Assembly: GCF_900116555.1 (NCBI RefSeq)
Contig: NZ_FPAT01000007.1
Span: 124,001 to 188,000, forward strand
Direction of reading: 5' to 3'
DNA from: Actinopolyspora lacussalsi subsp. righensis
GTDB taxonomy: Bacteria; Actinomycetota; Actinomycetes; Mycobacteriales; Pseudonocardiaceae
DNA length: 64,000 nucleotides
The notes beneath the pieces were generated by a model. The model saw only the letters and a list, made by a program, of their open reading frames with translations, was not told where the DNA came from and searched no databases. This document shows positions 22,237 through 51,700 of this stretch, piece after piece (positions within the stretch are counted from its first letter, which is position 1; every line of letters begins with the position of its first letter). Made by a program: the position numbers and the translations under genes.

Positions 22237-22529
22237 ACGCCACGCGGCGGCGGTGCGGGTGGCCGAGTCCTCGAAGAGTGGGTGGTTCGGCTCACTTCGG
22301 GCACCTTCGGGGGTGTCGATGGGCTCGTTCGCCCCACCGCGCTGCCCGCTGCCGGAGCGGTCGCCGTAAGCGGTTGTGAAACCGCTGGGCACGGCGCTTA
22401 TGGTTCTTGTGATCGAAAAAGTGGGACCCCCTGCTCGGAAGGGGGTTCGCCCTGTTGTAAAGTAGTGGCACAACGGAAGGCGAGGCCGGAAACGAAAAAC
22501 CGAGTCGGCCGACCGGGAGAACCGAACAA

Positions 22530-22602
22530 GGGGCTGTGGCGCAGTTGGTAGCGCACCTGACTGGCAGTCAGGGGGTCACGGGTTCGAGTCCCGTCAGCTC
22601 CA
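22530..22602 (+). tRNA. tRNA-Ala (GGC), copy 1
   Basis: Acceptor stem GGGGCTG/CAGCTCC (one G-U pair), anticodon stem CCTGA/TCAGG, loop CTGGCAG giving anticodon GGC, and T arm GGGTTCGAGTCCC. CCA is not encoded. An identical gene is at 41027-41099. Confidence 0.97.
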
Positions 22603-22607
22603 CCGAC

Positions 22608-23547: not shown

Positions 23548-23574
23548 AGGACTCCCCTAATAGCCGTTTCGTTA

Positions 23575-23594
23575 TGTACGAGTTTTCTCGTACA
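23575..23594. promoter_or_regulatory. Inverted-repeat operator for the ArsR/MFS pair
   Basis: TGTACGAG-TTTT-CTCGTACA is a perfect 8-bp inverted repeat with a 4-base centre, located 27 bases beyond the ArsR start and 48 bases before the MFS start. Its position fits a site that blocks transcription in both directions. Confidence 0.72.
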
Positions 23595-23642
23595 GCAGCT
23601 ATGTTTCCGTCGGATCTGGCCATCAATCAAGGAGTTCCGGCC

Positions 23643-24929
23643 GTGACTGACAACGTGACCACTCAACAGCCTCAGAAATCCGAATCCGAGACTGAACAGT
23701 TGCGGCCCCCCGCCTCGAGCGGTCGTGATGCCCCTCCCGGTGTGGCTCCCCGTTGGTGGGTCTGGCTCACCGCTTTCCCGGTGGCCGCGATCTTCGCACT
23801 GTCCAACGCCGCCACCCCGCTGTACGTGCTGTGGCAGCGCGATATCGGTTTCTCGCAGGGCGTGCTCACCGTGATCTTCGCGCTCTACATCGTCGGACTC
23901 ATCGGTTCCCTACTGGTGTGCGGGGTGGTCTCCGACCGGCTCGGACGCAAGACCGTGCTCTTCCCCGCCCTGATACTGGCGCTGATCGCCTGTCTCATGT
24001 TCGCCGCGGCGGATTCGGTACTGGTGCTGTGTGCCGCCCGGTTGTTCACCGGGATTTCCGTCGGAGCGGCGGTATCGGCAGGCATGGCGGCGGTCACCGA
24101 CGTCGGGGGAGCTTCCCGCAAACGACTGGCCGCCCTGCTCGCCTCGACCGCGATGGTGCTGGGGGCGGGACTCGGGCCTATGCTGGCCGGTGTTCTCTCC
24201 GAACTGGCGCCCGGGCCGACGGTGACTGTGTTCGCGGTTGAGGCCGGTCTGCTGGCGCTTGCCCTGCTCGTCGTGTGGCGTATGCCGGTGAGCCGCCCCC
24301 GTTCCACCGGCAGCGGGGCGTGGATCCGCGTGCCCTCGGTGCCGAAGAACGACCGGCTGCGGCTCGTGCTCGGGATCGCGGTCTTCGCACCGGGAATCAC
24401 CGCTACCTCGTTCGTGCTCTCACTCGGGCCTTCCCTGCTGGCGAGCCTGCTGGGGTCGACGAATCGGATGGTCGCTGGCGGATTGGCCTTCGTGATGTTC
24501 CTGATCGCCACCGGTATCCAGTTCGCGGTGCAGCGGATGTCGGTACCCCGCATCCTGCAGCTGGGTGCGGTCAGCACGGTGCTGAGCATGGTGGCGATGG
24601 CCGCCGCGGTGTTCACCAATTCCGTGCCTCCGTTGGCCCTCGCGGCTCTGCTGGCCGGTTGCGGCCAGGGCATGGGACAGCTGGGAGGACTCTCGTTGCT
24701 CAATGCCTCCGTTCCCGGTCATCGGCTCGCCGAGGCCAACGCGGGGCTGAACGTCGGTGGCTACGCGCTGGCGGGCACGCTTCCGGTGTTGACCGGTTAC
24801 CTCAGTGACCTCGTCGGGCTGGCCGCCGGAACCATGGCCTTCGGAATCGTCCTCATCGTGCTGGCGGCCACGGGAGGAGTGATCGTCACCGCTACCAGGA
24901 AGAACATCGAACCGACGCCCTCCCGCTAG
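23643..24929 (+). CDS. MFS transporter
   Basis: Major facilitator of 428 residues. The start is the GTG at 23643 with AAGGAG eight bases before; an upstream ATG at 23574 lies in the operator and is unlikely. A hydrophilic N-terminal tail (Gln/Ser/Glu) of about 40 residues precedes 12 predicted helices. The motif DRLGRKTVLFP is in loop 2-3. It is probably an efflux pump under control of the divergent regulator. Confidence 0.93.
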   Translation: MTDNVTTQQPQKSESETEQLRPPASSGRDAPPGVAPRWWVWLTAFPVAAIFALSNAATPLYVLWQRDIGFSQGVLTVIFALYIVGLIGSLLVCGVVSDRLGRKTVLFPALILALIACLMFAAADSVLVLCAARLFTGISVGAAVSAGMAAVTDVGGASRKRLAALLASTAMVLGAGLGPMLAGVLSELAPGPTVTVFAVEAGLLALALLVVWRMPVSRPRSTGSGAWIRVPSVPKNDRLRLVLGIAVFAPGITATSFVLSLGPSLLASLLGSTNRMVAGGLAFVMFLIATGIQFAVQRMSVPRILQLGAVSTVLSMVAMAAAVFTNSVPPLALAALLAGCGQGMGQLGGLSLLNASVPGHRLAEANAGLNVGGYALAGTLPVLTGYLSDLVGLAAGTMAFGIVLIVLAATGGVIVTATRKNIEPTPSR

Positions 24930-25670: not shown

Positions 25671-25784
25671 GACGTAGCGATCCGTGTTCGATCGGACACT
25701 TTGACGGTTTTCTTGTTACGTCCGGACGGATTCCGTGCCATGCTCGCGGCTGTCGTGGAGCGCATCGACGGGAGTGCCGTGGAC

Positions 25785-26831
25785 ATGGGATACACCATGA
25801 CTGATGGGGGCTACGAGAACTCCGAGCGAGGAGGGCGAGCGGTATCGAAACCACGCAGCGACAGCGGCGGGTCGACGAGTGACGAGTTCCTGCAGGCCGT
25901 CTCCGCCGCCGCGGACATCGACAACTTCGATCTCCGCCACCTGAGATACTTCCTGGCCGTGGTGCAGGCCGGTAGTGTTTCCGGGGCCGCGCAGGAGTTG
26001 TACATCTCGCAGCCGAGCCTGAGTCAGCAGATCCGGCGTCTGGAACGGCGGTTGGGGGCGGCGTTGTTCGTCCGGACCGCCTGGGGAGTTGAACTGACCC
26101 CGGACGGTCGGGCTTTTCTCGATGCTGTCCAGGGGATTCCCGCCCAATTGCGTACCGCGATATCAGCCGTGGCCCCCGCTCCCTCCCAGTGGAAGGTGGG
26201 AGTGTGCGGCGGAGTTCCGGAGCAGGCGCTGTTCGAAGTCCAGCGCGGACTGTCGCGGTGCCTGGAACGTGGCAACGGATTCGTCAACACCGATCAGTCG
26301 CTGAGCATGCAGGCAGTACCCGCGGCGTCGCAACCGGAGCTCATCGAGCGCGGTGAGCTCGCCTTCGGCATAGTTCGATTGCCGCACAGCAGCACGGGAC
26401 TGGTGTGCGGCACCCTGCTCGACGAACCACTCGGACTCGTGATGCGCAAGGAACACCCATTGGCGTCGAGCACGACACTGAGCTGGGAAGCTCTCGCTTC
26501 GCAGCGTCTGGTCTGGTACAACTCGGGCTGCGCCCCGGGGTATGCCGAAGTGGTCCTTTCGCAGCTGGCGGAACTCGGATGGCAGCCGAGGCTGCACCCG
26601 TTGGATCAGGACCAGGACGCGCTGTTCCGCCACGCCATGTTGTCGATGCCGAGCCTGGTGGCGTTGCGTCCGGCCTCCGTGATCAACGACGACGAGTTGG
26701 TGTGGCGTCCGCTGCCGACCCAACACGCCCCGCGGGAGCGACTCGCGCTGGCCACTCTGGGCGGGAGCCGTTTCGAGAGCACGTTGCGTCGGGCAGCGCG
26801 ACAGGAGGGGTGGATGGTCTCCTCCACCTGA
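25785..26831 (+). CDS. LysR-family transcriptional regulator
   Basis: Regulator of 348 residues. The HTH is at about residues 50-105 (LRHLRYFLAVVQAGSVSGAA, then YISQPSLSQQIRRLERRLG). The C-terminal ligand domain has two subdomains from about 135. It has an unusual N-terminal extension of about 45 residues; start candidates are the GTG at 25779 and the ATGs at 25785 and 25797. It converges on the seven-gene operon, so it is a good candidate for its activator although not divergently placed. Confidence 0.88.
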   Translation: MGYTMTDGGYENSERGGRAVSKPRSDSGGSTSDEFLQAVSAAADIDNFDLRHLRYFLAVVQAGSVSGAAQELYISQPSLSQQIRRLERRLGAALFVRTAWGVELTPDGRAFLDAVQGIPAQLRTAISAVAPAPSQWKVGVCGGVPEQALFEVQRGLSRCLERGNGFVNTDQSLSMQAVPAASQPELIERGELAFGIVRLPHSSTGLVCGTLLDEPLGLVMRKEHPLASSTTLSWEALASQRLVWYNSGCAPGYAEVVLSQLAELGWQPRLHPLDQDQDALFRHAMLSMPSLVALRPASVINDDELVWRPLPTQHAPRERLALATLGGSRFESTLRRAARQEGWMVSST

Positions 26832-26996: not shown

Positions 26997-27881
26997 TTAC
27001 TCGAGTGACAGCATTTCAGCAGGATTTCCCTGGGTGATTCTCCGGGCCAGCGCGGTGTCCACCGCCGTGACCCGGAACCACCGCGCGGTACGTTCCAGCC
27101 ACGGCCGGACGTCGAGCTGTTCGGGTTGGCCGAGGTCCGAGCTGTACACGGTTCCGGGGTGTGCCGAGGTCACCGATGCCAGCTCGTCGAGCTCCCGACG
27201 GCGCAGCAGGTACGTGAGTGCCGTGGTTTCGGGATAGATCCAGCGCAGTGTGGCCAGATCGGCCAGATCCCGAGCGCGCAAACCGGACATCGGGTGAGTC
27301 GCGTGTGTCAGCATCAGCGGGGGTGCCGGGCGTAATCGCTCGGCTTCTTCGATCACTCGTAGCGTCTCCTGTCGGTTGCAGTGTCCTGTGGCGAGTACGA
27401 CCGGAAGATCGCGAGCCGAGCGCATCACCTCGCGCACCTCGGAGCTGAGATCGCCGTCGTCGTCCAGCATCCCCGGGCTGGACCAGCGCTCGGTTTCCAC
27501 CGCGGGGTGAAACAGTTTCCGTCCGGGAGAGTGATGCGGGGAGTGGTGGCCGGGTGCGGAACGGGTGAGGGTGGGCAAGTAGACGATCAGACGGGCCGGC
27601 GGTTCCGGGCCGTGCGCATAGACCGCCTGCTCCACGACGCTGGTCCGGACTCCGCCGGACAGCTCGTTGAGCACCACGGATCCCGAGACGGGTAACCCCT
27701 CCTGTCGCGCCTCCCACGCCTGTGCCGCGGTGGAGGTCAGGTGGCTCTTGAGTACCACCCAACCTCCGGCCTCGGAGTGGACCCGACCGGCCTGTGCCGC
27801 CGTGTAACGGCGGCGGTACAGGTCCGGTCCCGCGTGGTAGTGCACGTCCACGTACTCCGCATCCGCCGGACACGTGATCAC
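26997..27881 (-). CDS. DUF6282 family metal-dependent hydrolase
   Basis: Protein of 294 residues, last gene of the operon. The GTG at 27881 overlaps the stop of the fusion gene by 4 nt. An amidohydrolase-like metal motif HYH is seen in EYVDVHYHAGPDLYRRRY, with later His in VVLKSHL, ATGHCNRQ and MLTHATHPMSG, and Asp in YSSDLGQPEQ. The closest family I recall is DUF6282. Likely hydrolysis of a ring or amide intermediate. Exact chemistry unknown. Confidence 0.82.
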   Translation of the reverse strand: MITCPADAEYVDVHYHAGPDLYRRRYTAAQAGRVHSEAGGWVVLKSHLTSTAAQAWEARQEGLPVSGSVVLNELSGGVRTSVVEQAVYAHGPEPPARLIVYLPTLTRSAPGHHSPHHSPGRKLFHPAVETERWSSPGMLDDDGDLSSEVREVMRSARDLPVVLATGHCNRQETLRVIEEAERLRPAPPLMLTHATHPMSGLRARDLADLATLRWIYPETTALTYLLRRRELDELASVTSAHPGTVYSSDLGQPEQLDVRPWLERTARWFRVTAVDTALARRITQGNPAEMLSLE

Positions 27882-29671
27882 GACTGCTCCTTGAGCCGTT
27901 CGTCCCACGGGCGTGAGTAGCCGTACCGCTCCCTGGCCTCGTCGAGGCGGAGACCGGACGTGACTCCCCGTGCGATCTCGGACTCGGTGCGCTCGACGCG
28001 CTCGGCCCGCTCGACCGTTTCCACGAGGTGCTCGGCGGGAATCCGGAGCGCGCCGTTGTCGTCGGCAACGATCACGTCGCCATGACGGACCGTGGTTCCC
28101 GCGATGTCCACGTCGGCACCCGTGGCGGCCAGTTCCACCCGGTTCTTCCCGCTGACCATGGTCACCCCCGAGCTGAACAGCGGATATCCCAGTTCGTTGA
28201 TCTCCGCGACATCGCGTGCACTGCCGTGCACCACCGTGCCGTGCACACCCCGTCGTTGCGCCACGGTCGTCAACAGGGAACCCCAGTTCGTGCAGGAGGT
28301 GCTGCCCTGGTTATCCAGCACGACGACGCTTCCCGCGGGCACCTCGTCGAGGTAGTTCGCGGCATCGCGGTACTCGGTGTCGTCGGCGTCCACTTCGCGA
28401 TAGGTCACCGTGTAGGCGAGCCCCGCCGCACGGGTGCCGGTGACGCGAGCCGCTATACCTGGTAGGACTCCTCTGACCCCCATGCTGTCCAGGGCATCGG
28501 AGACAGCGGCGGTGTCGAGTGCGCCCAGCCGTTCGAGCAGTTCGTTCTCGGGATCGGCACCGTGCTTCCGCTTCGTCCACCGGAACGGCCGCAGCTGTTC
28601 GACGAGCTCTGCACCCGCCTGCTCGGTCGTGGCGGTTCCACCGAGATCGTAGGTGACCGCCCGGCGCGAACGAACGGCACGAGTGACCGCGTCTGCCATG
28701 TCCCCCGCGGCAACCGGCATGTCCACATGACGGAGCAGTTGCGCGAGGGCCAGGACCGTCCCGGTCGGGTTGGCGCGGCTATCGCCCGCCATGCCCGGTG
28801 CGCTTCCGTGCACCGGTTCGAAGTAGCTTCCCCGGTCGCCGATGTTCCCACTGCCCGCCAACCCCAGGCCGCCCATGACACCGGCACCCAGGTCCGAGAG
28901 GATGTCGCCGAACATGTTCTCCGCCACCAGAACCTGGAACCGTTCCGGCCTGCGAACCATCCAGAGGGCCACCGCGTCGACGTTGAGGATCTCGGTTTCG
29001 ATCTCGGGGTACTCCTCGGCGTGCGATTCGAGACGCTCGCGCAGGAAATTACCGCTCTGACGCAGCACGTTGGGCTTGTCGACCAACGTGAGCCGCCGAC
29101 GTCCCTGAGCGCGTGCGTGTTCGAAACCGAAACGCAGTATCCGATCGATGCCGTGACGAGTCTGTAATCGTAGCGTAGCGCTGGTGTTCCTCCTGCCCGA
29201 GACCGAGGCGTTGGGATGATCTCCCACTACCGCCCACAGTGATTCGTCAAGGCCGTGGAAGTCTAGGCCCGCGTAGAGGCCCTCGGTGTTCTCCCTGATG
29301 ACCGTGAAGTCGAAGCGTCCTTCGGCGAGGTCGGTCACGGGGCGGACATTGGCGTACAGCCCCAGCCGTTGTCGCAGCTGGACCACCGGTGAGACGAAGG
29401 TGTGGCCGGTTCCCCGCAGCGCGGGGGACAGCTCGGCGTCCGCTTCTCGCGCGGGTTTACTGGTTATGGCACCGAGCAGGCAGGTGTCGGTCTCCTCCAG
29501 GAGTTTCCAGGTGCGTTCCGGAACCGGATCTCCCTCCTCCTGCCAGAACTTCCAGCCGATGTCGCCGAAACGGACTTCCAACGGCAGGTCCAGTTTGTCC
29601 AGTACGTCCAGCGCGGCGTCGGTGACCTCGGGGCCGATGCCGTCTCCGGGCAGAACCGCGATGCTCGTCAT
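27878..29671 (-). CDS. Fusion: IPMDH/tartrate-type dehydrogenase + RraA-family aldolase
   Basis: Single protein of 597 residues. Residues 1-355 are a beta-decarboxylating dehydrogenase ([10 protein letters not shown], the substrate loop [54 protein letters not shown]), close to tartrate/D-malate/isopropylmalate dehydrogenases. Residues about 370-560 are an RraA-fold domain ([30 protein letters not shown]), as in 4-hydroxy-4-methyl-2-oxoglutarate aldolases. The linker [19 protein letters not shown] reads straight through. Starts with ATGA overlap and AAGGAG inside the previous gene. Each domain is of full length. Fusing a dehydrogenase/decarboxylase to a retro-aldolase suggests channelling of a 2-oxo acid. 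Confidence 0.9.
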
Positions 29672-30441
29672 CGTTGGATCTCCTTTCGGAGGAAGCCTCG
29701 AACGGTCGCGGCGACCTCGGCCTCCCCGTCGATGTGGGGGCGCATGCCGGCTCCGCGCACCGTGTGCACTCGGTGGTGCTCGGCGGCGGCTGTGTGCACT
29801 GTCGAAACGAGTCGAGAGGCACCTCCGACGATGTTGAGCAGCGCTCCGGGGTGCCTTCGCACAGCACGGGTCACGTCGAGGCGACGCAGCATTCGCATGC
29901 CGACTGCCAGACGGTTCCCGGCAGAGCTCGGATGGTGGAGTAAACGACTCTCAGCCGAGTCCTCCGGTTCGACGTCTCGCGGGAGCACCGCACGCGCCAG
30001 TGCCGCGAGGCTCTCGTGGGGGTGGCCGGCCTCGGCCGGTTCGGCTATCGTCGCCAGCCGTCGTTCCAGGGTGGCGTCGGTCCGCGCGGGACCGGACACC
30101 AGCAGAACGCCGGTGCTCGGTGGCAGGTGTGGGAGCAGATACTGTGCGACTGCTCCGCCCAGGGCGTTGCCGCAGACCAGATCGAGGTGCCCTAGGCGGG
30201 GGAGCCACGCCGACCAGTGTTCCGCCAGCGCGGCGAGCGTGGCGGTGGAGTCGTCCAGCATGCTCAACGTGTCCACCACGAAGACCCGCATTCCGGCTTC
30301 GTTGAGCAGACGGGTCACTGGTTCGAAGAACGCACCTCCTTCCCACTCGGGCAGGACGGGACTGAATACCAGTGCTTGTCGCGCGGTGGCGTCCGCGGGT
30401 AGGAAGGCCGCCACCGACACGTCCCGTTCCTGCGTGCTCAC
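29668..30441 (-). CDS. Alpha/beta-hydrolase-like protein lacking the catalytic Ser
   Basis: Protein of 257 residues. The fold is suggested by the strand-turn-helix LDLVCGNALGGAVAQYLLP, the place of the usual G-x-S-x-G; here the nucleophile position is Ala (GNALG). The His region GMRPHIDGEAEV near residue 235 is where a catalytic His is expected. Without Ser it may be a non-hydrolytic C-C bond enzyme or a binding protein. GTG start, 4-nt overlaps with both neighbours, so expression is tightly coupled. Confidence 0.72.
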   Translation of the reverse strand: MSTQERDVSVAAFLPADATARQALVFSPVLPEWEGGAFFEPVTRLLNEAGMRVFVVDTLSMLDDSTATLAALAEHWSAWLPRLGHLDLVCGNALGGAVAQYLLPHLPPSTGVLLVSGPARTDATLERRLATIAEPAEAGHPHESLAALARAVLPRDVEPEDSAESRLLHHPSSAGNRLAVGMRMLRRLDVTRAVRRHPGALLNIVGGASRLVSTVHTAAAEHHRVHTVRGAGMRPHIDGEAEVAATVRGFLRKEIQR

Positions 30442-31370
30442 GAAGCGGCCGCCAGACCGCGGGCCTTCACGAGCCCTTCACGCGCGTCCCCCAGGATGTT
30501 TCTGCGGTGCTCGACCGGCAGGTCATAGCGGCCGAGCACCAGATCCGGCACGGAGAGCGAAGGAGTCGCTTCCGGCACCTTGGCCAACAACAATTCGGCG
30601 AGTTCGAGCGCTGGGGCTAGCTGGAGGTGGGAACAGGTGCCGGGGGAGGACCGGTCGAGGTGTGCCAACCACTGTTCCGCGATCAGGTTCCCCGGGCCCT
30701 TGCCCATGCCCTGGATCGACGAGTCCATCCAGACGGCACCGTGATCGGCTGCCGCGATGGCATTGCTCAGCGCCAGCCCGAGGTTGTTGTGCGCGTGCAG
30801 CCCAACGTCACCACCGGTGATGCTCCTGGTCAGCGTCACCAGCTCCGCTGCTTCCATAGGGGACAGGCTTCCGTTGGAGTCGGCCAGGTAGACGACGTCC
30901 GCCGCCGCGTCCGCGCACGCCGCGGCCAGGTCCGCGAGCCGGCGAGCGGACAGTTGACTGACCCTGGCGAAGTTCACTCCTACGGTGAAGCCGATCTCCC
31001 GTGCTCGGCGTACGTGGCGAAGCCCCGGCTCCGGCTCGTCGGGAGGGACGATGATGCGGACCAGTCGGGCTCCCGCCGCGTACATCTCGGTCAGGTCGGC
31101 TGCTGTGATGTTCTTCGGATGCAGGATGATCGCCACGTGCTCCGGGCCGATCTCCCTTGCCATGCTGCGGATGTATTCGTTTTCCCCCCTTCCGGTCAGT
31201 CCGATGTTCGGAATCGGTTTGAATGATCCGTTTCGGTAAGCGATCTCGACCCAGTCGAAACCGGACTCAACGCTGAGACGTGCGTGTTCCAGGGCGTAGT
31301 CCAGTGGGAAGGCGAAACCGTTGCGGTAGCCGCCGTCGCGGAGGGTGACGTCGATGTTGATGAAGCTCAT
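30438..31370 (-). CDS. DRE-TIM metallolyase (HMGL-like aldolase)
   Basis: Aldolase-like protein of 310 residues. The family motif is DVTLRDGGYRNGF at residues 7-19, and the metal-binding HAHNNLGLALSNAI is near 190. Both are intact, as in 4-hydroxy-2-oxovalerate aldolases and HMG-CoA lyases. It also has VYLADSNGSLSPMEA. The likely reaction is retro-aldol cleavage or condensation using a divalent metal. No acetaldehyde dehydrogenase partner is next to it, so it is not an ordinary meta-cleavage pair. Confidence 0.88.
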   Translation of the reverse strand: MSFINIDVTLRDGGYRNGFAFPLDYALEHARLSVESGFDWVEIAYRNGSFKPIPNIGLTGRGENEYIRSMAREIGPEHVAIILHPKNITAADLTEMYAAGARLVRIIVPPDEPEPGLRHVRRAREIGFTVGVNFARVSQLSARRLADLAAACADAAADVVYLADSNGSLSPMEAAELVTLTRSITGGDVGLHAHNNLGLALSNAIAAADHGAVWMDSSIQGMGKGPGNLIAEQWLAHLDRSSPGTCSHLQLAPALELAELLLAKVPEATPSLSVPDLVLGRYDLPVEHRRNILGDAREGLVKARGLAAAS

Positions 31371-31412
31371 TTCCGGAACCTTTCGGTGTGTCCTCGTCGG
31401 GACTGCTGTGGA

Positions 31413-32837
31413 TTACCGAGCGAACCCCGCGGCGTGATGAGCCGCACGCCTACCGAAGATCAACGAACGTAATACCGAGGTGGCGGGTGGGTAGGCGTGG
31501 TAGAACAGCCCGGTCGCCTCGCCGGCGGCGTACAGACCGGGTATGGCGGTCGTGGAGGGTGTGACCACACGCGCCGACGTGTCGGTGCGGACGCCGCCGT
31601 AGGTGAAGCACACGGCAGCGGTGATGGGAATGCCGATGAAGGGTGCCGTGTCGAGCGGGATCGCCCAGTTCGACTTGTCGGGTTCCAGACCGGTTGTGTG
31701 TTTGGCATCGAAACCGAAGGGGCCGAACTCACCGGGCCGGATCGCCGCGTTGAACTCAGCGACCGCCTTGTCCAGTCCTCCCGGATCGACGCCGAGCTTG
31801 TCCGCCAACTCCTCGATCGTGTCCGCCTGTTCCGGAGGGACATCGCTGAGCAGCGAATTCATGATTCCGGGGATGGACAGGGTCTTCGCGTCCGCGATCC
31901 AGTACGCTTCTTGGTTCTGGTTGCGCCAGACTTCGTAACCGACGTGCTCGAAAGTGTTGTCCCAGGTGTTCTGCCCCTCGTCGAAAAAGCGTTCCAGCTT
32001 GCCGTTGAGGAAGATCCCGTAGCTGAAGCCGTACAGCACCGCGTCCGCCGCGTCGGTGCGACGGTCCACGGGCTCGGCGTGGATCATGTCGAACTGACCC
32101 GCCGTGTCGGCGCCCAGTTCCGACGTCATGCGCAGGGCGTCCCCACGGTTGTTGCCGACGCCGGGAGCTATGAGCGGTAGGTCGCAGGCCCCGGCCCCCG
32201 CGTACCGCGCGAGCATCTCTGCGTTTCCCTCGAAACCACCGCAGGCCAACACCACCGCCGTGCCGCGAAGTCGTCGCAGACGCCCGTCGGAACCACGAGC
32301 CAGGACGCTGTTCACGTCGCCGTTGTCGTCGAGGCCGAGGCGAAAGGCTTCGGTCTCGTAGTGGACATCGACCCTCGGATCCGCTTCCAGCTCGTTTCCC
32401 AGGTTCTCGACGATCGAGGCACCGCCCCCGTCCGGGCTCGCGGGCGCTGACATGCCCGGTTGACCGCCGTGGAAGGTGTGCGGCAGGGGAAAGTCGTCGA
32501 ATCGGATCCGCACACCGTGTCGTTCGAGGAACCGGAGGGTTTCCGGTGTCTGCTGTTCCAGCGTGCGGCAGTACTCCTCATCGGCCAGCCCACCGGATAC
32601 TCGGCGCATGTGATCGACCCAGTCGGTATCCAGATTTCGTTGCTCGTCCACCCGGAGGAAAGCCCCGGTCCATCGAGTGGCACCACCGCGTTCCGCACGC
32701 GGTGCCCGTTCCAACACCGCGATGCGCGCGGGGCGCTCCCAGTTCTCGGAGGCTTCGGCGTAACTCAGGGCAGCGGACAGGCCAGCTGCGCCGAATCCCA
32801 CGACGATGAAGTCGTAATCTTGTGATTCGGGATCCAT
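31413..32837 (-). CDS. FAD-dependent dehydrogenase, tricarballylate dehydrogenase/fumarate reductase type
   Basis: Flavoprotein of 474 residues. Dinucleotide motif VVGFGAAGLSAALS at residues 12-25, second FAD motif VVLACGGFEGNAEML near 195, and the C-terminal FAD motif GGVRTDTSARVV then GLYAAGEATG near 440. This is the FAD_binding_2 architecture of TcuA, fumarate reductase and 3-oxosteroid dehydrogenases. No signal peptide, heme motif or FMN motif, so a cytosolic dehydrogenase. AGGAG precedes the ATG. Confidence 0.9.
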   Translation of the reverse strand: MDPESQDYDFIVVGFGAAGLSAALSYAEASENWERPARIAVLERAPRAERGGATRWTGAFLRVDEQRNLDTDWVDHMRRVSGGLADEEYCRTLEQQTPETLRFLERHGVRIRFDDFPLPHTFHGGQPGMSAPASPDGGGASIVENLGNELEADPRVDVHYETEAFRLGLDDNGDVNSVLARGSDGRLRRLRGTAVVLACGGFEGNAEMLARYAGAGACDLPLIAPGVGNNRGDALRMTSELGADTAGQFDMIHAEPVDRRTDAADAVLYGFSYGIFLNGKLERFFDEGQNTWDNTFEHVGYEVWRNQNQEAYWIADAKTLSIPGIMNSLLSDVPPEQADTIEELADKLGVDPGGLDKAVAEFNAAIRPGEFGPFGFDAKHTTGLEPDKSNWAIPLDTAPFIGIPITAAVCFTYGGVRTDTSARVVTPSTTAIPGLYAAGEATGLFYHAYPPATSVLRSLIFGRRAAHHAAGFAR

Positions 32838-32864
32838 GTTCTGTCTCCTGGTTCGTTCCGGGGA

Positions 32865-33452
32865 TCAGTTGCGCGGAGAGATTATTCGGCTGGTGCGGTA
32901 GAGCCGGAATTTCGCGTGGTTCGTGGTCTCGGCGAACACGCCGTATCGGCGACGGAACTCCGGATCGTCGAATATGGCGTCGAAGTGTGGCTTGCTCGAC
33001 CACATCGCGAAGTTGACGATCGCGTCTCCGTCGAGGCTGGTCAGCAATCGTGAGCCCTGGAACCCTGGCGCGTGCGAGACGTGGTCGACGGTCTTCGCCA
33101 GTGCCTCCACCGATTCCTCGGCGTCGTCGGTGGTCGCGACATTGATCAGTAGTACCTGTTCGTTCATGCCGGTGGCCGTGATCACGCCGGGACTGGCGTA
33201 GCGGCCGTCGAAGGATGTCCACTCGTAGGTGGCTACATCGTGCTGGTGCCACGGGTCGTCCTCGATGAGCCGCCGCACCCCTTCGTCGGACAGATCCGCG
33301 GTTACTACCGTGCCGCCGCCGTTCACGGCGGGGCCTGCCAGCAGGATGAGTCCCGCGTCGCAGTTGCGGCGTACCCACTCTCGGTGTGCTTCCAGATGTC
33401 GGGCGACGAGTTCGTCCGATGCCGTGATGCTCAGTCTCAGAACGTGGATCAT
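32865..33452 (-). CDS. YciI-like + antibiotic biosynthesis monooxygenase (ABM) domain fusion
   Basis: Protein of 195 residues made of two ferredoxin-like alpha/beta domains. Residues 1-90 are YciI-like (HLEAHREWVRRNCDAGLILLAGP, and DDPWHQHDVATYE). Residues about 95-190 are ABM-like (LLINVATTDDAEESVEALAKT, APGFQGSRLL, NFAMWSS). Either domain may isomerise or oxidise a small ring intermediate. The fusion is unusual. 27 nt before the next gene. Confidence 0.72.
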   Translation of the reverse strand: MIHVLRLSITASDELVARHLEAHREWVRRNCDAGLILLAGPAVNGGGTVVTADLSDEGVRRLIEDDPWHQHDVATYEWTSFDGRYASPGVITATGMNEQVLLINVATTDDAEESVEALAKTVDHVSHAPGFQGSRLLTSLDGDAIVNFAMWSSKPHFDAIFDDPEFRRRYGVFAETTNHAKFRLYRTSRIISPRN

Positions 33453-33492
33453 GTTTTCTCTCCTCGATGTGCCGATGCGGGAACGGAACTGT

Positions 33493-34485
33493 TCAGACCC
33501 GCGAACCGGCGTCGACCAGCCGGTTGAGACGCGAGGCGACCTGCTCGGCCTCCGTGACTGTTTCGTGCACGATTTCGGCGGCCGGTCGGATCTCGTTCAC
33601 CAGATCCAGCACCTCGCCGGCGAACATGGCCCGCTGTGTGGTGTCGTCGGCCACGACGGCTGCGGTCCAGGTCGGTTCCACTTCGTGGCGGACCGCCTCG
33701 AGTTCGTCGTCCCGTCCGTTCCAGGTTCGGGTGAAGTCGTTTTCCACGGCCCGTGCCTGATACATCCCGTCCCAGGGGATTCCCCGCAGCACGTCGAAAG
33801 AGCGGGTGTTGACGGTCTCCGAGGTGCCGCTGCCCACCAGGGTGCTCCGAAAACCGGGGGTGGACAGCGATTCCTGAGCCGCGGCGAATCGAGTGCCCAT
33901 CATGACGCCGTCGGCTCCCAGGGCCAGAGCTGCCGCGAGCCCGCGACCGTCCGCGATACCGCCGGCCGCTATCACCGGAATGCTCTCGGAGCACGCTTCG
34001 ACGACGGCGGGAATCAGCGGAAGCGTCGCTTGTGACTTGTGGTGCCCTCCGGCTTCGGCGCCCTGGACGATCAGCATGGTTGCGCCGGACTCCACCGCGA
34101 TCCTGGCCTGTGCCACGTCGTGCACCTGCACCGGCACGTGTGCCCCGGCCGAACGTGCCGAAGAGACATACCTGCTCACCTGGTCCGGGTCACCGAATGA
34201 CAGCGCCACCACGGGTGGCGCATAGGACATCACTCGCTCCCACAGACCGGGCCGCTCGTCGAAAGTGAACATCACGCAGCCGACACCCCACATACCGTCG
34301 AACTCCGCTGTGCGCGCGACGTGCTCGTCGATGAAACCGGCGTCTCCGTAGCTGACACCCACGAGTCCCAGCCCCCCAGCGGTAGACACCTCGGTGGCCA
34401 GGTGACTCCCTGCCACCGAGCCCATGGGTGCGCTGACCACCGGATGCTCGATCCCGAGCAATTCGGTCATTTTTGTCCGAATCAC
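33493..34485 (-). CDS. Nitronate monooxygenase-like FMN protein
   Basis: FMN TIM-barrel protein of 330 residues. Features are PVVSAPMGSVAG near the N-terminus, VQGAEAGGHHKS with the conserved His, and the phosphate-binding AAGGIADGRGLAAALALGADGVMMGTRF. The start is GTG at 34485 with GGAG five bases before; ATG at 34470 is possible. In this context it may oxidise an enolate-like intermediate rather than a nitronate. First gene of the operon. Confidence 0.88.
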   Translation of the reverse strand: MIRTKMTELLGIEHPVVSAPMGSVAGSHLATEVSTAGGLGLVGVSYGDAGFIDEHVARTAEFDGMWGVGCVMFTFDERPGLWERVMSYAPPVVALSFGDPDQVSRYVSSARSAGAHVPVQVHDVAQARIAVESGATMLIVQGAEAGGHHKSQATLPLIPAVVEACSESIPVIAAGGIADGRGLAAALALGADGVMMGTRFAAAQESLSTPGFRSTLVGSGTSETVNTRSFDVLRGIPWDGMYQARAVENDFTRTWNGRDDELEAVRHEVEPTWTAAVVADDTTQRAMFAGEVLDLVNEIRPAAEIVHETVTEAEQVASRLNRLVDAGSRV

Positions 34486-40870: not shown

Positions 40871-41026
40871 GGCGAGCGCGCCGTGCCCGGGCCGTCATCG
40901 GCGGCCCGGGCATCCGTGTGGGCACGGCGTGGGGCGGGCCCCCGAACGGCTCGCGTGCGGGCGGTGTATCGTGTCCGCGCAAGGGATGAGCAGTCACGAC
41001 GAGCTGAACATCCCGATCGGGAAAAC

Positions 41027-41099
41027 GGGGCTGTGGCGCAGTTGGTAGCGCACCTGACTGGCAGTCAGGGGGTCACGGGTTCGAGTCCCGTCAGCTCCA
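41027..41099 (+). tRNA. tRNA-Ala (GGC), copy 2
   Basis: Identical over all 73 bases to the gene at 22530. CCA is not encoded. Downstream sequence is unrelated, with no similar terminator. Confidence 0.97.
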
Positions 41100-41148
41100 C
41101 AGTAGATATTTGACAGCTCCGCTCCTCGCTTCGTCGCCGCGGGCACCG

Positions 41149-45349: not shown

Positions 45350-45792
45350 CGCGCCGGGTGACGCAACCGAAGGCGCGGGAATCGCGTCCCCGACACGAAG
45401 AGTGTTCTCACGGAGAGTGCTCGGAGGATTTACGCGCGCGTTGTAATTGTCAAACGATTTTTTGTCCATGCCGAAAATTGTGAAAACGAACACCGCGCGA
45501 ACCGGTTGATCGGCACAAAAAGATCACAAAGAGATATACCCTCTTCAATTCACGCCAGTTTCACGGCTAAGTTCCGCCGGGCGTTTCGACGGCCGGGCCC
45601 GGATTGCCGGGTTCCGCCGCGTGACGCCGGTACGTGCAGTTCGGGACCGAACGGAGACGGGTCCGGTGTGGGCACACCGCCTTCCGTCGCTCCGGCGTGG
45701 CCGGTGCTCCGCTCGGTTCCACTCGGGTCGTGGTCGGCTCTCCGCTGTCGCGGTGGGGCGGTCCGCGGCTCACGGCTGGTGAGGAACTTCTG
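45350..45792. other. Leader region of the giant RHS gene
   Basis: About 440 bases. An AT-rich core at 45440-45550 probably holds the promoter; candidate -10 boxes (TATACC around 45535) leave a long 5' leader. In-frame codons continue upstream of the ATG at 45793 as far as 45634, but the signal peptide starts only at 45793. Confidence 0.5.
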
Positions 45793-48700
45793 ATGAGCTA
45801 CGACGCGCACCGTGGCAGCACGCCGCGTCCCGCCAGGATCGGGTCGTTACTGCTCGCGTTGGCAGTGGTCGTGGGGCTGATCAACGCCCCGCAGCTGCAG
45901 GCGCGGGCCGCCACGCAGGGCGAGATCCCGGAACAGCGGCAGGGCAGTGCGGCCGGGCGCTCCCACGACGCCTCCAGCGAGGACACCTCGGCCGAGAACG
46001 AATCCGGCGGGAAGTCGCACAACGCGCGGCCCGCCGAGGGGCTGCCCTCGGACGAACGCCCGCCCGCCCCGGAACTGCCGCAGCAGTTGCCGGAGAAGGC
46101 GAAGGTCAGCATCGGCTCCGAACCGGACGCCGCCACTCGAGGGTTCGATCCCAACACCAGCCGTGAGCTCAAGAGTGAGCGCTCCAGCCAGAGCCAGACC
46201 TTCGCCAACGCCGACGGCACCAGGACGCTGCGCGTCTACCAGAGCCAGAAGTTCGCCGAGACCACCGACGGCGGCCTCCAGCCGGTCGATCTGACCCTGG
46301 AACAGGACGGCGGTGTCTGGAAGACCACCACCGACTCGCGGACCAAGAACTTCGCGGACGCCGCGAGCACCTCCGAGATCGCCTCGGTCGAACTCGCCGA
46401 CGGCAGATCCCTGGGATTCCGGGTGGCCGACGCCGCCGACGTCACCGCGAAGGTCTCCGGCAGCTCGGTCACCTACCCGGGGATCCGGCCGCAGTCCGAT
46501 CTCAACCTGCAGGCCACCGCGGTCGGCATCAAGGAGACGATCCGGCTGAAGTCGGCCGACGCGCCGACCGTGTGGGACTTCCCGATGAACGTCGGCGATC
46601 TCACGCCGGAGCCGCACGAGGGCTCGGTGCTGCTCAAGGACTCCGAGGGCGAGGTCCGCCACGTCATCCCGCCGGGCTACATGGTGGACTCCAACGTCCA
46701 CCCCCGCTCCGGTGAGGGCGTGCGCTCCGACGGCGTGAAGTACGAGATCGTCGGCGACGCCGAGCAGCCCGTGCTGCGGGTCTCGGTGGACGAGGAGTGG
46801 CTCGCGGACCCGGAACGGGTCTTCCCGGTCAAGGTCGACCCGAGCGTGGTCGGCAAGGACACCGACGGCACCACCTACGTGCAGTCGCCCTACGACAGCG
46901 ACTACTCGGGCGAGCCCAACATGAGCGTGGGCACCTACAACGGCGGTGGCAACAAGGCCGCCGCCTTCCTGAAGTTCGACTCGATCAGCTCCGATCTGGC
47001 GGGCAACTACATCCTCGGTGCCAGGCTGCGGATGTTCGAGACCTGGTCCTACTCCTGCGAGGCCAGGCCGGTTCGGGTGCACGAGGTCACCCAGCCCTGG
47101 TCGGTGCAGGGCAGCAAGAGCTATCCCGGACCGGCCACCGGCGCGGAGATCGCCCGCAAGAGCTTCGCCCACGGCTACAACGACAGCTGCGGGTCGCAGT
47201 GGGTGGACATCCCGCTGGGCAACGCCGGGCGCGATCTCGTGCACGGCTGGACCCACGGCGAACCCAACCACGGCCTGGCGCTGCGCGCCTCGGACACCGA
47301 CTCCAAGGGTTGGAAGAAGTTCGCCAGCGCGGCCTCGGCCAACCCGCCCTACCTGGAGGTCACCTACACGCCGTACTGGGCCGACTACGAGCTCGGTGGT
47401 ATGAGCCCGGTCGTCACCAGCAGCGACGACGGCCGGATGAGCGTCACGGTGACCAACCGCGGGCGCGACACCTGGACCCCGGACAACGACTACAAGCTGG
47501 GCTACCGGCTCTGGGACGCCGAGGGCAACGAGCTGCCGCGCACCTCCACGGCGTGGACGGACATGCCGCACGACGTCGCTCCCGGACAGACGGTCACCCT
47601 CGACGCCCGCGTCGAGAAACTGCCGCCGGGCGAGTACTCGCTGCGCTGGGACATGGACCACTACGGCACCACCCGGTTCTCCTCGACCGGTGCGCCGATG
47701 TCGGCGTCGGTGGCGTTCACCGTGCCCAACCAGCCGCCCGCCGTGGACTCCATGTCGCCGCCCAGCGACTACAACGCCTCGGTACTGACCCCCACGCTCG
47801 CGCTGACCGGTCACGACCAGGACGCCTACCCGGGCGAGGGCATCAACTACCGCTTCAAGGTCTGCTCCGCGTCCGGTGAGGACTGCTTCAACTCCGGCTG
47901 GGTGGACTCCCCGGTCTGGTCGGTGCCGGAAGGCGAGCTCACCTGGGGCGAGAACTACGTCTGGTACGGCCAGATCGGCGACATGCGGATCGCCAGCCCC
48001 TGGACGCAGGGCTCCCACCTGACCACCAAGGTGCCGCAGCCGCCGGTGACCAGCCACCTCTCCTCAGGTGACGAGGTCGGCGGGCGCGTCGACCCCGGTG
48101 TGGGCAACTTCGCCGAGGTCGAGACCGACGCCGAGATCGCCGCCGTGGGTCCGGAACTGTCCGTGGCGCGCTCCTACAACAGCCTCGACCCACGGCAGAA
48201 CCTGGCCTTCGGCTCCGGCTGGTCGACCAAGTGGGACGCGCGGGTGGTGCCCGACGACGACGGTTCCGGCAACGTCGTGGTCACCTACGCCACCGGGCAG
48301 CAGGCCCGCTACGGGCGGAATCCCGACGGCAGCTACGCCACCCCCTCCGGCCGCACCGCCACGCTGGTGCGCACCGAATCGGACGGTTGGACGCTGCGCA
48401 CCCAGGGCGGCCAACGCTACGAGTTCGACTCGAACGGACGGCTGAGCCGGATCGTCGACGCGCAGGGGCGCGAGCAGCACCTCTCCTACGACGACTCGGG
48501 CAACCTCGCCACGGTCACCGACGCCACCTCGGGGCGCTCGCTGAACCTGACCTTCTCCGGCGGGCACGTCACCGAGGTCAGCACCGCGCCGGATCCGGTG
48601 TCGACCTGGTACTACCACTACGACGGCGATCGGCTCACCAGGGTCTGCGACCCCACCGGGGCCTGTGACAACTACACCTACACCGACAGCTCGCACTACC

Positions 48701-51700
48701 GCTCGGTCACGCTCGACGCCAACCCGCACGCCTACTGGCGACTGTCCGAACAGTCCGGCACCGCCGTGACCAGCGAGGTACCCGGCTACTGGGAGTCCAA
48801 GGAAGCCACCTCCCACAACCTCACCCACGGCAGGCCCGGCCCGATCGCGGGCGGCTCCACCACCGCCGCCGGTTTCGACGGCTCGTCCAGCTACGTCCAG
48901 CTGCCCGACGACATGGTGCGCAACTCGCAGTACCTGGCCGTGGAGATGTGGTTCAAGACCAGCAGTTCCAACGGTGAGATCCTGTTCTCCACGGGCTACG
49001 ACCGGCCGGGCACCTCGAACCCGAGCGACGCCGCCATGCCGGTGCTCTACGTGGGCACCGACGGCAAGCTGCACGGCCACTTCTGGAACGGCAAGACGGC
49101 CGGGATCGCCACCGGTTCCACCGTCAACGACGGTGAGTGGCACCACGTGGTGCTCTCCGGCGCCCGCGACACCCAGACGCTGTTCCTCGACGGGCGGACC
49201 GTGGGCAGCCAGAGCGGAGAACTCGCCAACGTCGACCCGCTCAACCACGTCGGCGCGGGCTGGTTCAACTCCCGCGACTGGCCCGCCGCCCCCAACGCGA
49301 CGTGGGACTACTTCGACGGCGACATCGCCGAGGTGGCGATGTACCACCAGCCGATGGGCCGAACCGTCGCCGCCGAGCACCACGCTGCCCGCACCGCCAC
49401 CGAACAGCTGACCTCCATCAAGCGCGCTGGCGGTGCCTACGCGGCCGAGATCTCCTACGATTCGTCCACCGCCAGGGTGACCAGCTACACCGACTCGGAC
49501 GGCGGCACCTGGCAGGTCGGTGAGTCCACCACCGAGGGCGACGGGTTCCGCTACGGCGAAGCCGTGACCGGATCGCGCCCGAACGCCCACTGGCGACTGC
49601 GGGAGAACGAGGGAACCACCGCGCGCGGCGATCCCGCGCTGCGGCGCGCCGAGTACCACTCGGTCTCGCGCACCTCCGGCCCGTTCCCGGACACCGCGGC
49701 GCGTTCCTTCGACGGGCAGCGCTCCTACGTCCAGCTACCGGACGACGCGCTCACCGGCAGGAAACGACTGGCGGTCGAACTGTGGTTCAAGACCTCCAGC
49801 ACCGACGGCGGCGTGCTGTTCTCCACGGGCAACAACCGCCCGGACGACGAGAACCCCACCGGCGGTGCCATGCCGGTGCTCTACGTGGGCACCGACGGCA
49901 AGCTGCACGGCCACTTCTGGAACGCCAAGACCGAGGGCGCCGTCTCGGCGAACAAGGTCAACGACGGCCAGTGGCACCAGGTGATGCTGTCCGGCAAGCC
50001 CGAGCAGCAGACGCTGTACCTGGACGGTAACGCCGTCCAGACGCTGCAGGGCGAGCTGCAGAACGTCGACCCCTACGGCTACGTCGGAACCGGGCTGCTC
50101 AACGGCCTGAACTGGCCCGCCAAACCCGAGGGCACCTGGGGCTACTTCGAGGGCTCGATCGGACAGGTCGCGCTGTACCCCTACGGAGTCTCAGCCTCCG
50201 ACGCCCAGGAGCACTACGCGGCGCGCGGCGACGCGGCCGACTACCGGGCGGCCGTGCGCGAGGAGAACGTCCACACCCTCTGGACACTGGGCGATCCGGC
50301 GGGCAGCACGCACGCCGAATCGGTGCACGCGCTGACCGACGCCACCTACCACGGTGTCGACAAGGACGTTTCCCCGCCGATGCGCGGCGCGGGAGCCGTC
50401 GGTTTCGACGGGCAGAGCTCGTACGTGCGACTGCCCAACAGCCAGGCGCGCGGCCGCGGCCGACTATCCGTGGAGATGTGGTTCAAGACCTCCAGCTCGG
50501 CCGGCGGGGTGCTTTACGCCACCGGCTACTTCGGGCCGAACGTCTCCCAACCGTCCACCGGTGCCGTGCCGGTGCTCTACGTGGGCACCGACGGCAAGCT
50601 GCGCGGGCACTTCCGCAACGGCAAGGTTTCGGGGATCACCACCGACTCGGCCGTCAACGACGGTGAGTGGCACCACGTGGCGCTGTCGGCCGCCGGCGAC
50701 TCGCAGCGGCTCTACCTGGACGGCGACATGGTGGGATCGCAATCGGGCGAGGTCGACAACTTCTTCCGCTACGACTTCCTCGGCATCGGACAGGTCGACT
50801 CGAAGGACTGGCCCGCCCTGCCCGACCAGGTGTGGAACCACTTCGAGGGCTCCATCGGCGAGGTGGCCCTCTACCACCGGCCGCTGGACAGCGCCAGCGT
50901 GGCCGACCACTACTCGGCCAGGAACGCGGCCACGGCCGTGGACATCACCGGCCCGGACGGCGGGGTCCGCACCTACACCTACGACCCCAACGCCGGTGGC
51001 CGGACCATCTCGGTGACCAACTCGGACGGCGCCACCAAGGTGTACGGCTACGACACCGGCGGGTTCGTCAACCGGATCACCGACGCCAACGGCAACACCA
51101 CCAGGATCTCCAACGACGAACGCGGCAACCAGCTGTCCCGCACCCGATGCCGCACCGACGGCACCGAGAAGTGCTACACCAGCTACCGCTCCTACTACCA
51201 CAACCCCGACGACCCGCTGGACCCGCGCAACGGCAAGGTCACCGAGTTCCGGGACGCCCGTTCGGACTCCGAAACCGACGACACCTACCTGACCACCTAC
51301 TCCTACAACGCCGCGGGCAAGCTCACCAGCACCTCGGAGCCGGGTGAGACCGGCGGTGCCCAGCGCACCACCACCAACACCTACACCACCGGCGACGAAC
51401 CGGCTCCGGACGGCGGAACCCAGCCACCGGGGCTGCTGGCCTCCGAGACCGACCCGGCGGGCAACGAGACCAGCCACACCTACACCAGCGCCGGTGACCT
51501 GGCCAGCGTCACCGACCCGGCCGGGCTGGTCACCGAGTACGACTACGACGGACTCGGGCGCAAGACCACCGAGACCCAGGTCTCCGACAGCGAACCGGAC
51601 GGGCTGACCACCACCTTCGACTACGACCAGGCCTCCAGGCTGGTCGAGAAGGTCGGCCCCGAGACCGAGAACGCCGTCACCGGCGAGCTCCACCAGCGCC

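What the first reader, a model, noticed from the sequence alone, without database searches (positions are those of the whole stretch)
26997..34485. Seven-gene operon for an unidentified pathway
Gene order NMO-like, YciI-ABM, FAD dehydrogenase (TcuA type), DRE-TIM aldolase, pseudo-hydrolase, dehydrogenase-RraA, DUF6282. The last four genes are joined by 4-nt stop/start overlaps and none of the gaps exceeds about 45 nt, so the products probably act together. The enzyme classes (two C-C lyases, one decarboxylating dehydrogenase, one succinate/tricarballylate-type flavoprotein) fit catabolism of a branched polycarboxylate, but no known pathway has this set. Established knowledge is limited to each family; the pathway is inference.
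Basis: partly seen in the sequence, partly recalled or inferred. Interest (0 to 1): 0.78.

Follow-up and report, generated by a model that had tools for sequence, protein, structure and literature searches.

The report
Orphan metabolite operon on tRNA-linked island
A set of genes in an insertion beside a tRNA gene encodes a small metabolic pathway whose five-enzyme core recurs, with varying add-on enzymes and transporters, in very different bacteria, yet its product or substrate is unknown.

Summary
The seven-gene operon is real: coordinates, most family labels and the 4-nt overlaps check out. It is larger than described. A LysR gene (25701-26831) and an MFS transporter (23574-24929) go with it, and the nine genes lie beside a tRNA-Ala in a stretch missing from that place in a same-species strain. 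A five-gene core (DRE-TIM aldolase, alpha/beta-hydrolase with a damaged triad, isocitrate-type dehydrogenase, RraA aldolase, DUF6282) was matched in full in 45 of 80 fetched relatives from three phyla, among them Streptomyces, Pseudomonas, Legionella, Citrobacter and Pedobacter. These 80 were chosen by similarity of the dehydrogenase-RraA protein, so this is no frequency. NMO and ABM are an obligate pair and, like the FAD enzyme, optional. Other lineages add a CinA domain with a Bcr/CflA pump, a RutA-like oxygenase, or an ATP-grasp ligase. No description was found, but only open-access papers could be searched.

The parts
22530..22604 (+). tRNA-Ala (GGC) at the left edge of the island
   Evidence: ARAGORN; 80-nt direct repeat, 98% identical, with 41021-41100; the relative strain's alignment resumes at 22603
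23574..24929 (+). MFS transporter, efflux-type by weak matches only
   Evidence: Pfam MFS_1; NCBIfam matches all below cut-off; 70% identical copy near the core in L042, 53% and 50% in Pseudomonas L080 and L085; 29-32% in 5 of 6 same-family loci
25701..26831 (+). LysR regulator (true start probably about 70 codons downstream: HTH begins at residue 78)
   Evidence: Pfam HTH_1 and LysR_substrate; 42-59% identical LysR near the core in L039, L040, L042, L051, L053; 41-46% in L174-L179
26997..27881 (-). DUF6282, predicted metal-dependent amidohydrolase-fold enzyme
   Evidence: PF19799 149.7 bits; H14, H16, H47, H167, D249 invariant in 44 sequences; AF2 pLDDT 93; Foldseek to dihydroorotase and other amidohydrolases
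27878..29671 (-). fusion of beta-decarboxylating dehydrogenase (residues 4-353) and RraA-type aldolase (387-541)
   Evidence: Pfam Iso_dh 265.4 bits and RraA-like 112.2 bits; catalytic residues conserved
29668..30441 (-). alpha/beta-hydrolase fold protein whose expected catalytic His, and mostly Ser, are replaced
   Evidence: no Pfam hit; Met at the expected His position in 45 of 49, Ser kept in 17 of 49 (position chosen by motif); AF2 pLDDT 93.2; fold matches
30438..31370 (-). DRE-TIM aldolase, 4-hydroxy-2-oxovalerate-aldolase-like
   Evidence: Pfam HMGL-like; PDB 1nvm E=2.8e-29; R11, D12, H192, H194 in 49 of 49
31413..32837 (-). FAD enzyme of the fumarate reductase/tricarballylate dehydrogenase family (optional part)
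   Evidence: Pfam FAD_binding_2; NCBIfam TcuA best but below cut-off; in 8 of 80 loci
32865..33452 (-). ABM-domain protein with a YciI-like N-terminal half (accessory, always with NMO)
   Evidence: Pfam ABM 26.3 bits, YCII sub-threshold; same 16 of 80 loci as NMO
33493..34485 (-). NMO/FabK-like flavoprotein (accessory)
   Evidence: Pfam NMO 157.1 bits; in 16 of 80 loci
41027..41100 (+). second tRNA-Ala (GGC); in strain G1098 a diverged MFS-LysR-DUF6282 remnant lies beside this copy

Best explanation
A LysR-controlled operon, moved horizontally and inserted beside tRNA-Ala, that makes and exports a small oxo-acid/polycarboxylate-derived metabolite. SHOWN: gene content, synteny, conserved catalytic residues, predicted folds, patchy distribution. 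INFERRED: (1) the DRE-TIM enzyme joins (or splits) a pyruvate-type enolate and an aldehyde/oxo-acid; (2) DUF6282 (metal-dependent) hydrates, dehydrates or opens/closes a ring, in place of the missing aconitase-type isomerase; (3) the dehydrogenase oxidises and decarboxylates an isocitrate-like hydroxy-acid; (4) the fused RraA domain adds or removes pyruvate/oxaloacetate on that product; (5) the damaged hydrolase, with invariant D57, R177 and R234, holds a carboxylated intermediate or catalyses a non-hydrolytic step; (6) NMO+ABM and the FAD enzyme (elsewhere a RutA-like oxygenase or an ATP-grasp ligase) tailor it; (7) the MFS protein exports it.
For: All five core genes matched on one strand in 45 of 80 fetched loci from three phyla. 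LysR and MFS co-conserved. A Bcr/CflA-type MFS lies in 23 of the 29 loci with a CinA domain and in 0 of the other 51; 7 of the 8 MFS scanned from CinA-type loci pass the Bcr/CflA cut-off. ATP-grasp protein in 12 of 13 Legionella loci (two scanned). RraA catalytic Arg 52/53 and metal Asp 53/53, cf. R123/D124 of HMG/CHA aldolase (PMC5065237, abstract and passages). Dehydrogenase Y133, D232, D256 61/61; K199, D260 60/61. Hydrolase D57, R177, R234 49/49. Patchy: core-type DUF6282 in 7 of 297 family genomes, own included, and 1 of 369 in the Citrobacter class, the centre itself. Stretch absent from its place in one same-species strain. P. kilonensis cassette apart from other Pseudomonas.
Against: Transport direction cannot be read from sequence: the Bcr/CflA proteins also match the importer FslD (below cut-off); the window's own MFS reaches no cut-off; L176's (CinA-type) fails the Bcr/CflA cut-off and L098's best matches an aromatic-acid symporter family. 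No NRPS, PKS or other textbook biosynthetic marker was among the neighbours scanned. A divergent DUF6282 branch sits with RraA-like and dioxygenase genes, i.e. catabolism. A RutA-like oxygenase, NMO and LysR would equally suit catabolism. No substrate is identified.
Confidence: 0.5

Rival explanations
1. Catabolic operon: an imported polycarboxylate or ring-cleavage product is oxidised by the accessory flavoenzymes and split by the dehydrogenase and two aldolases to pyruvate, oxaloacetate and CO2.
For: [quoted passage not shown] Divergent DUF6282 proteins lie beside RraA-like genes in 8 of 22 genomes; the one looked at further (L140/L159, same place) also has intradiol and extradiol dioxygenase-type and FAA-hydrolase genes and LIV-type transporter-like genes (read by eye). 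RutA-like oxygenase in 12 of 80 loci, all with NMO and ABM.
Against: No carboxylate uptake system among the neighbours scanned. An ATP-grasp ligase in Legionella and CinA fusion in 29 of 80 loci have no obvious catabolic role. Bcr/CflA-type MFS in 23 of 80 loci.
Confidence: 0.35
2. Detoxification or metabolite repair: the operon removes a toxic host- or competitor-made carboxylate, with the MFS as an efflux pump.
For: Efflux-type MFS; the NMO family includes nitronate-detoxifying enzymes (recalled); host-associated genera among holders.
Against: Two C-C lyases plus a decarboxylating dehydrogenase and a conserved damaged hydrolase are more than a detox route usually needs; no toxic substrate known.
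Confidence: 0.12
3. Operon coupling is fortuitous: the genes serve separate routes.
For: Accessory genes vary; FAD is in only 8 of the 51 loci scored with four or five core genes.
Against: Core order and short overlaps recur in distant relatives; dehydrogenase-RraA fusion in both actinomycetes and Legionella.
Confidence: 0.03

Closest known systems
Gallate / protocatechuate 4,5-cleavage lower pathway (HMG/CHA aldolase, RraA fold)
   Same: RraA-type class II pyruvate aldolase with conserved Arg and metal Asp; divergent DUF6282 relatives sit beside RraA-like genes in an aromatic-catabolism setting
   Different: No ring-cleavage dioxygenase and no OMA hydratase in the operon; adds DRE-TIM aldolase, isocitrate-type dehydrogenase, damaged hydrolase, LysR and MFS
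2-Oxo-acid chain elongation (leucine, alpha-aminoadipate, AksF-type pathways; recalled)
   Same: DRE-TIM enzyme plus isocitrate/homoisocitrate-type decarboxylating dehydrogenase (best NCBIfam AksF2; best PDB isocitrate and homoisocitrate dehydrogenases)
   Different: DRE-TIM enzyme is closest to 4-hydroxy-2-oxovalerate aldolase, not to an acetyl-CoA synthase; no aconitase-type isomerase in the operon; RraA and DUF6282 are extra
Tricarballylate utilisation (TcuA)
   Same: FAD enzyme best matched by the TcuA model
   Different: Below the curated cut-off (309 against 369 bits); no other tricarballylate gene in the operon
Rut pyrimidine pathway
   Same: All 12 B-type loci carry a RutA-like and 9 a RutF-like gene (only L062's pair was scanned); the hydrolase has RutD among its better fold matches
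   Different: L062's proteins are below the RutA and RutF cut-offs; other rut genes were not searched for; the pair is absent from the window's operon

Membership tests
Tricarballylate dehydrogenase TcuA | score above NCBIfam NF006130 / TIGR02485 cut-offs | tested here: not met
   309.2 against 369 and 157 against 372.55 bits
Class II HMG/CHA pyruvate aldolase (RraA fold) | essential Arg (R123) and metal-binding Asp (D124) | tested here: met
   R 52/53, D 53/53 at the R-D position; roles from PMC5065237 passages; mapping is by motif, no direct alignment made
Class II HMG/CHA pyruvate aldolase (RraA fold) | score above the CHA aldolase NCBIfam cut-offs | tested here: not met
   72.8 against 304.5 and 71 against 179 bits
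Class II HMG/CHA pyruvate aldolase (RraA fold) | aldolase activity | not testable with these tools
   needs enzyme assay
4-hydroxy-2-oxovalerate aldolase | score above NCBIfam cut-offs | tested here: not met
   127 against 286 and 132 against 229 bits
4-hydroxy-2-oxovalerate aldolase | catalytic His (H21 of DmpG, recalled) | tested here: not met
   window has Tyr; Tyr 35, His 12, Asn 2 of 49 relatives
Isocitrate / isopropylmalate / tartrate / homoisocitrate dehydrogenases | catalytic residues of beta-decarboxylating dehydrogenases (roles recalled) | tested here: met
   R110, R126, Y133, D232, D256 in 61/61; R100, K199, D260 in 60/61
Isocitrate dehydrogenase proper | Ser and Asn of the substrate-binding S-x-N stretch (recalled) | tested here: not met
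   Ser 60/61 kept, Asn position V/I/L in 60/61; no isocitrate dehydrogenase cut-off reached among the 25 rows shown
Serine alpha/beta-hydrolases | Ser-His-Asp triad | tested here: not met
   expected His position M 45, T 3, A 1 of 49; nucleophile Ala 32, Ser 17. Positions chosen by motif, not by superposition; three residues on, His stands in 17 of 49, window included
Amidohydrolase superfamily (DUF6282) | barrel fold with HxH and further His/Asp metal ligands | tested here: inconclusive
   H14xH16, H47, H167, D249 invariant in 44; best Foldseek E 2.5e-5, TM at most 0.59 in the 50 rows shown; metal not testable
Integrative genomic island | integrase and att repeats | tested here: inconclusive
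   tRNA-Ala neighbour and absence in one strain; no integrase was looked for

The most novel reading that the evidence does not exclude
The cassette makes an unrecognised class of secreted TCA-cycle-like antimetabolite (a branched tri-/oxo-carboxylate). The CinA domain fused to the NAD-dependent dehydrogenase in many lineages clears NAD adducts that the compound or its precursor forms, as self-protection, while the damaged alpha/beta-hydrolase has become a new kind of lyase or carrier for polycarboxylates. (The NAD-adduct role of CinA is recalled from work on mycobacteria; no call here.)
Probability: 0.1. Interest if true: 0.85.

Novelty: new variant of a known kind. Interest (0 to 1): 0.6.

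Why it matters
A five-enzyme block kept together from Streptomyces to Legionella, Pseudomonas and Pedobacter must do something useful, yet its product or substrate is unknown and two of its families (DUF6282 and the damaged hydrolase) have no known function. Because the block is compact and occurs in culturable soil actinomycetes, it makes an orphan pathway directly testable, would give functions to both families, and could reveal a new metabolite class.

Tried and rejected
Known pathway by literature: searches for DUF6282, PSPTO_3202 to 3207, combinations of the enzyme names, DRE-TIM networks (10 of 35 papers listed) and RraA-type aldolases listed no paper whose title or abstract start names this operon. 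I read passages of PMC12078273 (unrelated) and PMC5065237; the rest I saw as listings only. Only open-access PMC was searched, so this does not prove that nothing is in print.

Seven genes as one fixed pathway: rejected, since NMO/ABM and FAD are optional. DUF6282 as a marker of this system: rejected; (22 of 396 genomes) the proteins other than the window's own are at most 31% identical to it where BLASTP aligned them, and 31 of 39 family hits score below 110 bits; of those 31 I fetched three regions (L180-L182), none with the core. E. coli: no DNA match to the Citrobacter locus. Plasmids: one Legionella plasmid with the core. Promoter/terminator scan: no more than shuffles, not used. Aconitase-type enzyme: none in the operon.

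Composition as proof of transfer: rejected; GC3 of the nine genes is 0.76-0.80 against 0.84-0.91 in the nearest called neighbours, but 0.75-0.79 also occurs elsewhere in the window.
Full report
THE OBSERVATION. Gaps are 40, 27 and 42 nt; the last four genes overlap by 4 nt at each of three junctions, taking the DUF6282 start at GTG 27881. Pfam confirms NMO, ABM, FAD_binding_2, HMGL-like, Iso_dh + RraA-like and DUF6282 above cut-off. The YciI half is sub-threshold, TcuA is the best NCBIfam match of the FAD enzyme but below its cut-off, and the hydrolase has no Pfam hit.

EXTENT. Two more genes go with it. The LysR gene 25701-26831 has 42-59% identical counterparts near the core in L039, L040, L042 (39% covered), L051 and L053 and 41-46% in all 6 same-family loci with the core that I fetched, L174-L179. 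L176 and L179 are probably the same records as L051 (Lentzea) and L053 (Prauserella), since contig lengths agree, so four are new; the family is therefore probably Pseudonocardiaceae (recalled taxonomy). The MFS gene 23574-24929 has a 70% copy in L042, 53% and 50% in Pseudomonas L080 and L085, 32% in L051, and 29-32% relatives in 5 of the 6.

ISLAND. A tRNA-Ala(GGC) gene lies at 22530-22604, and a 98% identical 80-nt copy, also tRNA-Ala, at 41021-41100. In a genome labelled same species, G1098, the flanks are 97-98% identical but the stretch between window 22603 and 35127 is missing at that place. Instead, beside the other tRNA-Ala, it holds a diverged MFS (91% protein), LysR (77%) and a 3' fragment of DUF6282 (74%, residues 187-301). 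So at least one strain lacks the enzyme genes, and the locus is linked to tRNA-Ala. The 8 other genomes of the genus listed have no DUF6282 match. Core-type DUF6282 (over 300 bits) occurs in 7 of 297 genomes of the family, own included, and in 1 of 369 in the class of the Citrobacter genome, the centre itself.

RELATIVES. Being chosen by this protein's similarity, they give no frequencies. Matches to all five core genes, on one strand and within 8 kb of the dehydrogenase, were found in 44 and in L100: 45 of 80. One search did not rescore 20 loci (L099-L118), for which only, with window proteins as queries, holds. Whether every frame is intact was not checked; for some the start-finding step met a stop. 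Seven more have four core genes, three of them (L041, L064, L066) without the aldolase near a contig end. All seven window genes are matched in L039, L040, L042 and L053; in L053 the order differs.

FOUR MAKE-UPS. A (window, L039, L040, L042, L053): NMO, ABM, FAD + core. B (12 loci, mostly Pseudomonas, one Burkholderia, one gammaproteobacterial MAG): core + NMO, ABM, a RutA-like monooxygenase in 12 of 12 and a RutF-like reductase in 9 of 12. C (29 loci: Streptomyces, Lentzea, Citrobacter, Lonsdalea, Endozoicomonas, Pedobacter, P. kilonensis, Bartonella and others): a CinA-type domain after the dehydrogenase; 23 of the 29 have a Bcr/CflA-type MFS, against 0 of the other 51; four Streptomyces also have a 42-45% FAD homologue. 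Pfam was run on the CinA domain of L090 only. D (Legionella): an ATP-grasp protein in 12 of 13 loci (in L046 weak and elsewhere) and in L119, nowhere else among the 80. NMO and ABM occur in the same 16 of 80 loci. In Bartonella, 8 loci match the dehydrogenase-CinA gene (L113 in two pieces), while no intact aldolase, RraA or DUF6282 was found: a decaying version. A FastTree of 50 taxa puts P. kilonensis apart from the other Pseudomonas, which suggests transfer; support values were not read.

ENZYME STATE. Dehydrogenase: catalytic residues kept in 60-61 of 61; the Ser that aligns with isocitrate dehydrogenases' substrate Ser is kept (60/61) but the Asn position is V/I/L (60/61) (role labels recalled). 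RraA: catalytic Arg 52/53 and metal Asp 53/53, by motif the residues R123 and D124 of the P. putida HMG/CHA aldolase (PMC5065237, abstract and passages). Its nearest PDB entry is 3k4i, an uncharacterised protein (P. syringae origin recalled). DRE-TIM: R11, D12, H192, H194 in 49/49, but the position of the catalytic His of 4-hydroxy-2-oxovalerate aldolase (recalled) is Tyr in 35, His in 12, Asn in 2. DUF6282: H14, H16, H47, H167 and D249 invariant in 44, a confident model, weak matches to amidohydrolases (best E 2.5e-5). Hydrolase: a confident alpha/beta-hydrolase model; at the expected His position no sequence of 49 has His (45 Met) and the nucleophile is Ala in 32, Ser in 17; D57, R177 and R234 are invariant. 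I chose these positions by motif; three residues further on, 17 of 49, the window among them, do have His, so a shifted His is not excluded. It is unlikely to be an ordinary serine hydrolase, and its arginines suit a carboxylate ligand (inference).

FUNCTION. All core enzymes suit short oxo-/hydroxy-polycarboxylates. Export is suggested by the transporters: 7 of 8 MFS proteins scanned from CinA-type loci pass the Bcr/CflA cut-off (L054, L063, L075, L079, L090, L092, L093; not L176). Those of the window, L042, L080, L176 and L057 match efflux models best, but below cut-off; L098's matches a symporter family best. The ATP-grasp protein of Legionella, the patchy distribution and the island also read as a specialised-metabolite locus. 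Against this, divergent DUF6282 proteins lie beside RraA-like genes in 8 of 22 genomes and, in the one examined further (L140/L159), near dioxygenase-type and FAA-hydrolase genes; and the RutA-like enzyme belongs to a catabolic family.

LITERATURE. Searches named in Tried and rejected found no description. They cover open-access text only.

Noticed in passing
window 45634-56568: A 3,644-aa ORF with RHS repeats, laminin-G domains, a pretoxin HINT domain and an AHH-type nuclease C-terminus, beside the island; looks like a polymorphic inter-bacterial toxin.
   Followed up: no
window 41021-41100 and 22524-22603; L173 13551-13624; L183 882-955: Two nearly identical tRNA-Ala genes bound an 18.5-kb stretch; in a same-species strain a diverged remnant of the locus sits at the other copy, so the twin tRNA genes may be alternative insertion sites.
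   Followed up: partly
L079, L081, L094, L095, L097, L103, L106, L113: Bartonella keeps the dehydrogenase-CinA fusion (and in 6 of 8 the hydrolase, in 6 of 8 the MFS, some in pieces) while the aldolase, RraA and DUF6282 are gone; only L106 shows aldolase scraps.
   Followed up: partly
loci L133-L140, L155, L159: A divergent DUF6282 branch next to RraA-like genes; in L159 also dioxygenase-type and PIG-L genes: a second, probably catabolic context for this unknown family.
   Followed up: partly
L039 12711-13793, L042 12765-13700: A metallo-beta-lactamase-fold protein follows the operon in two Streptomycetaceae loci; no such gene was noted in the window's operon.
   Followed up: no
L055, L061: Williamsia has a stand-alone dehydrogenase about 60% identical to the window's, without other core genes in the fetched loci.
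   Followed up: no
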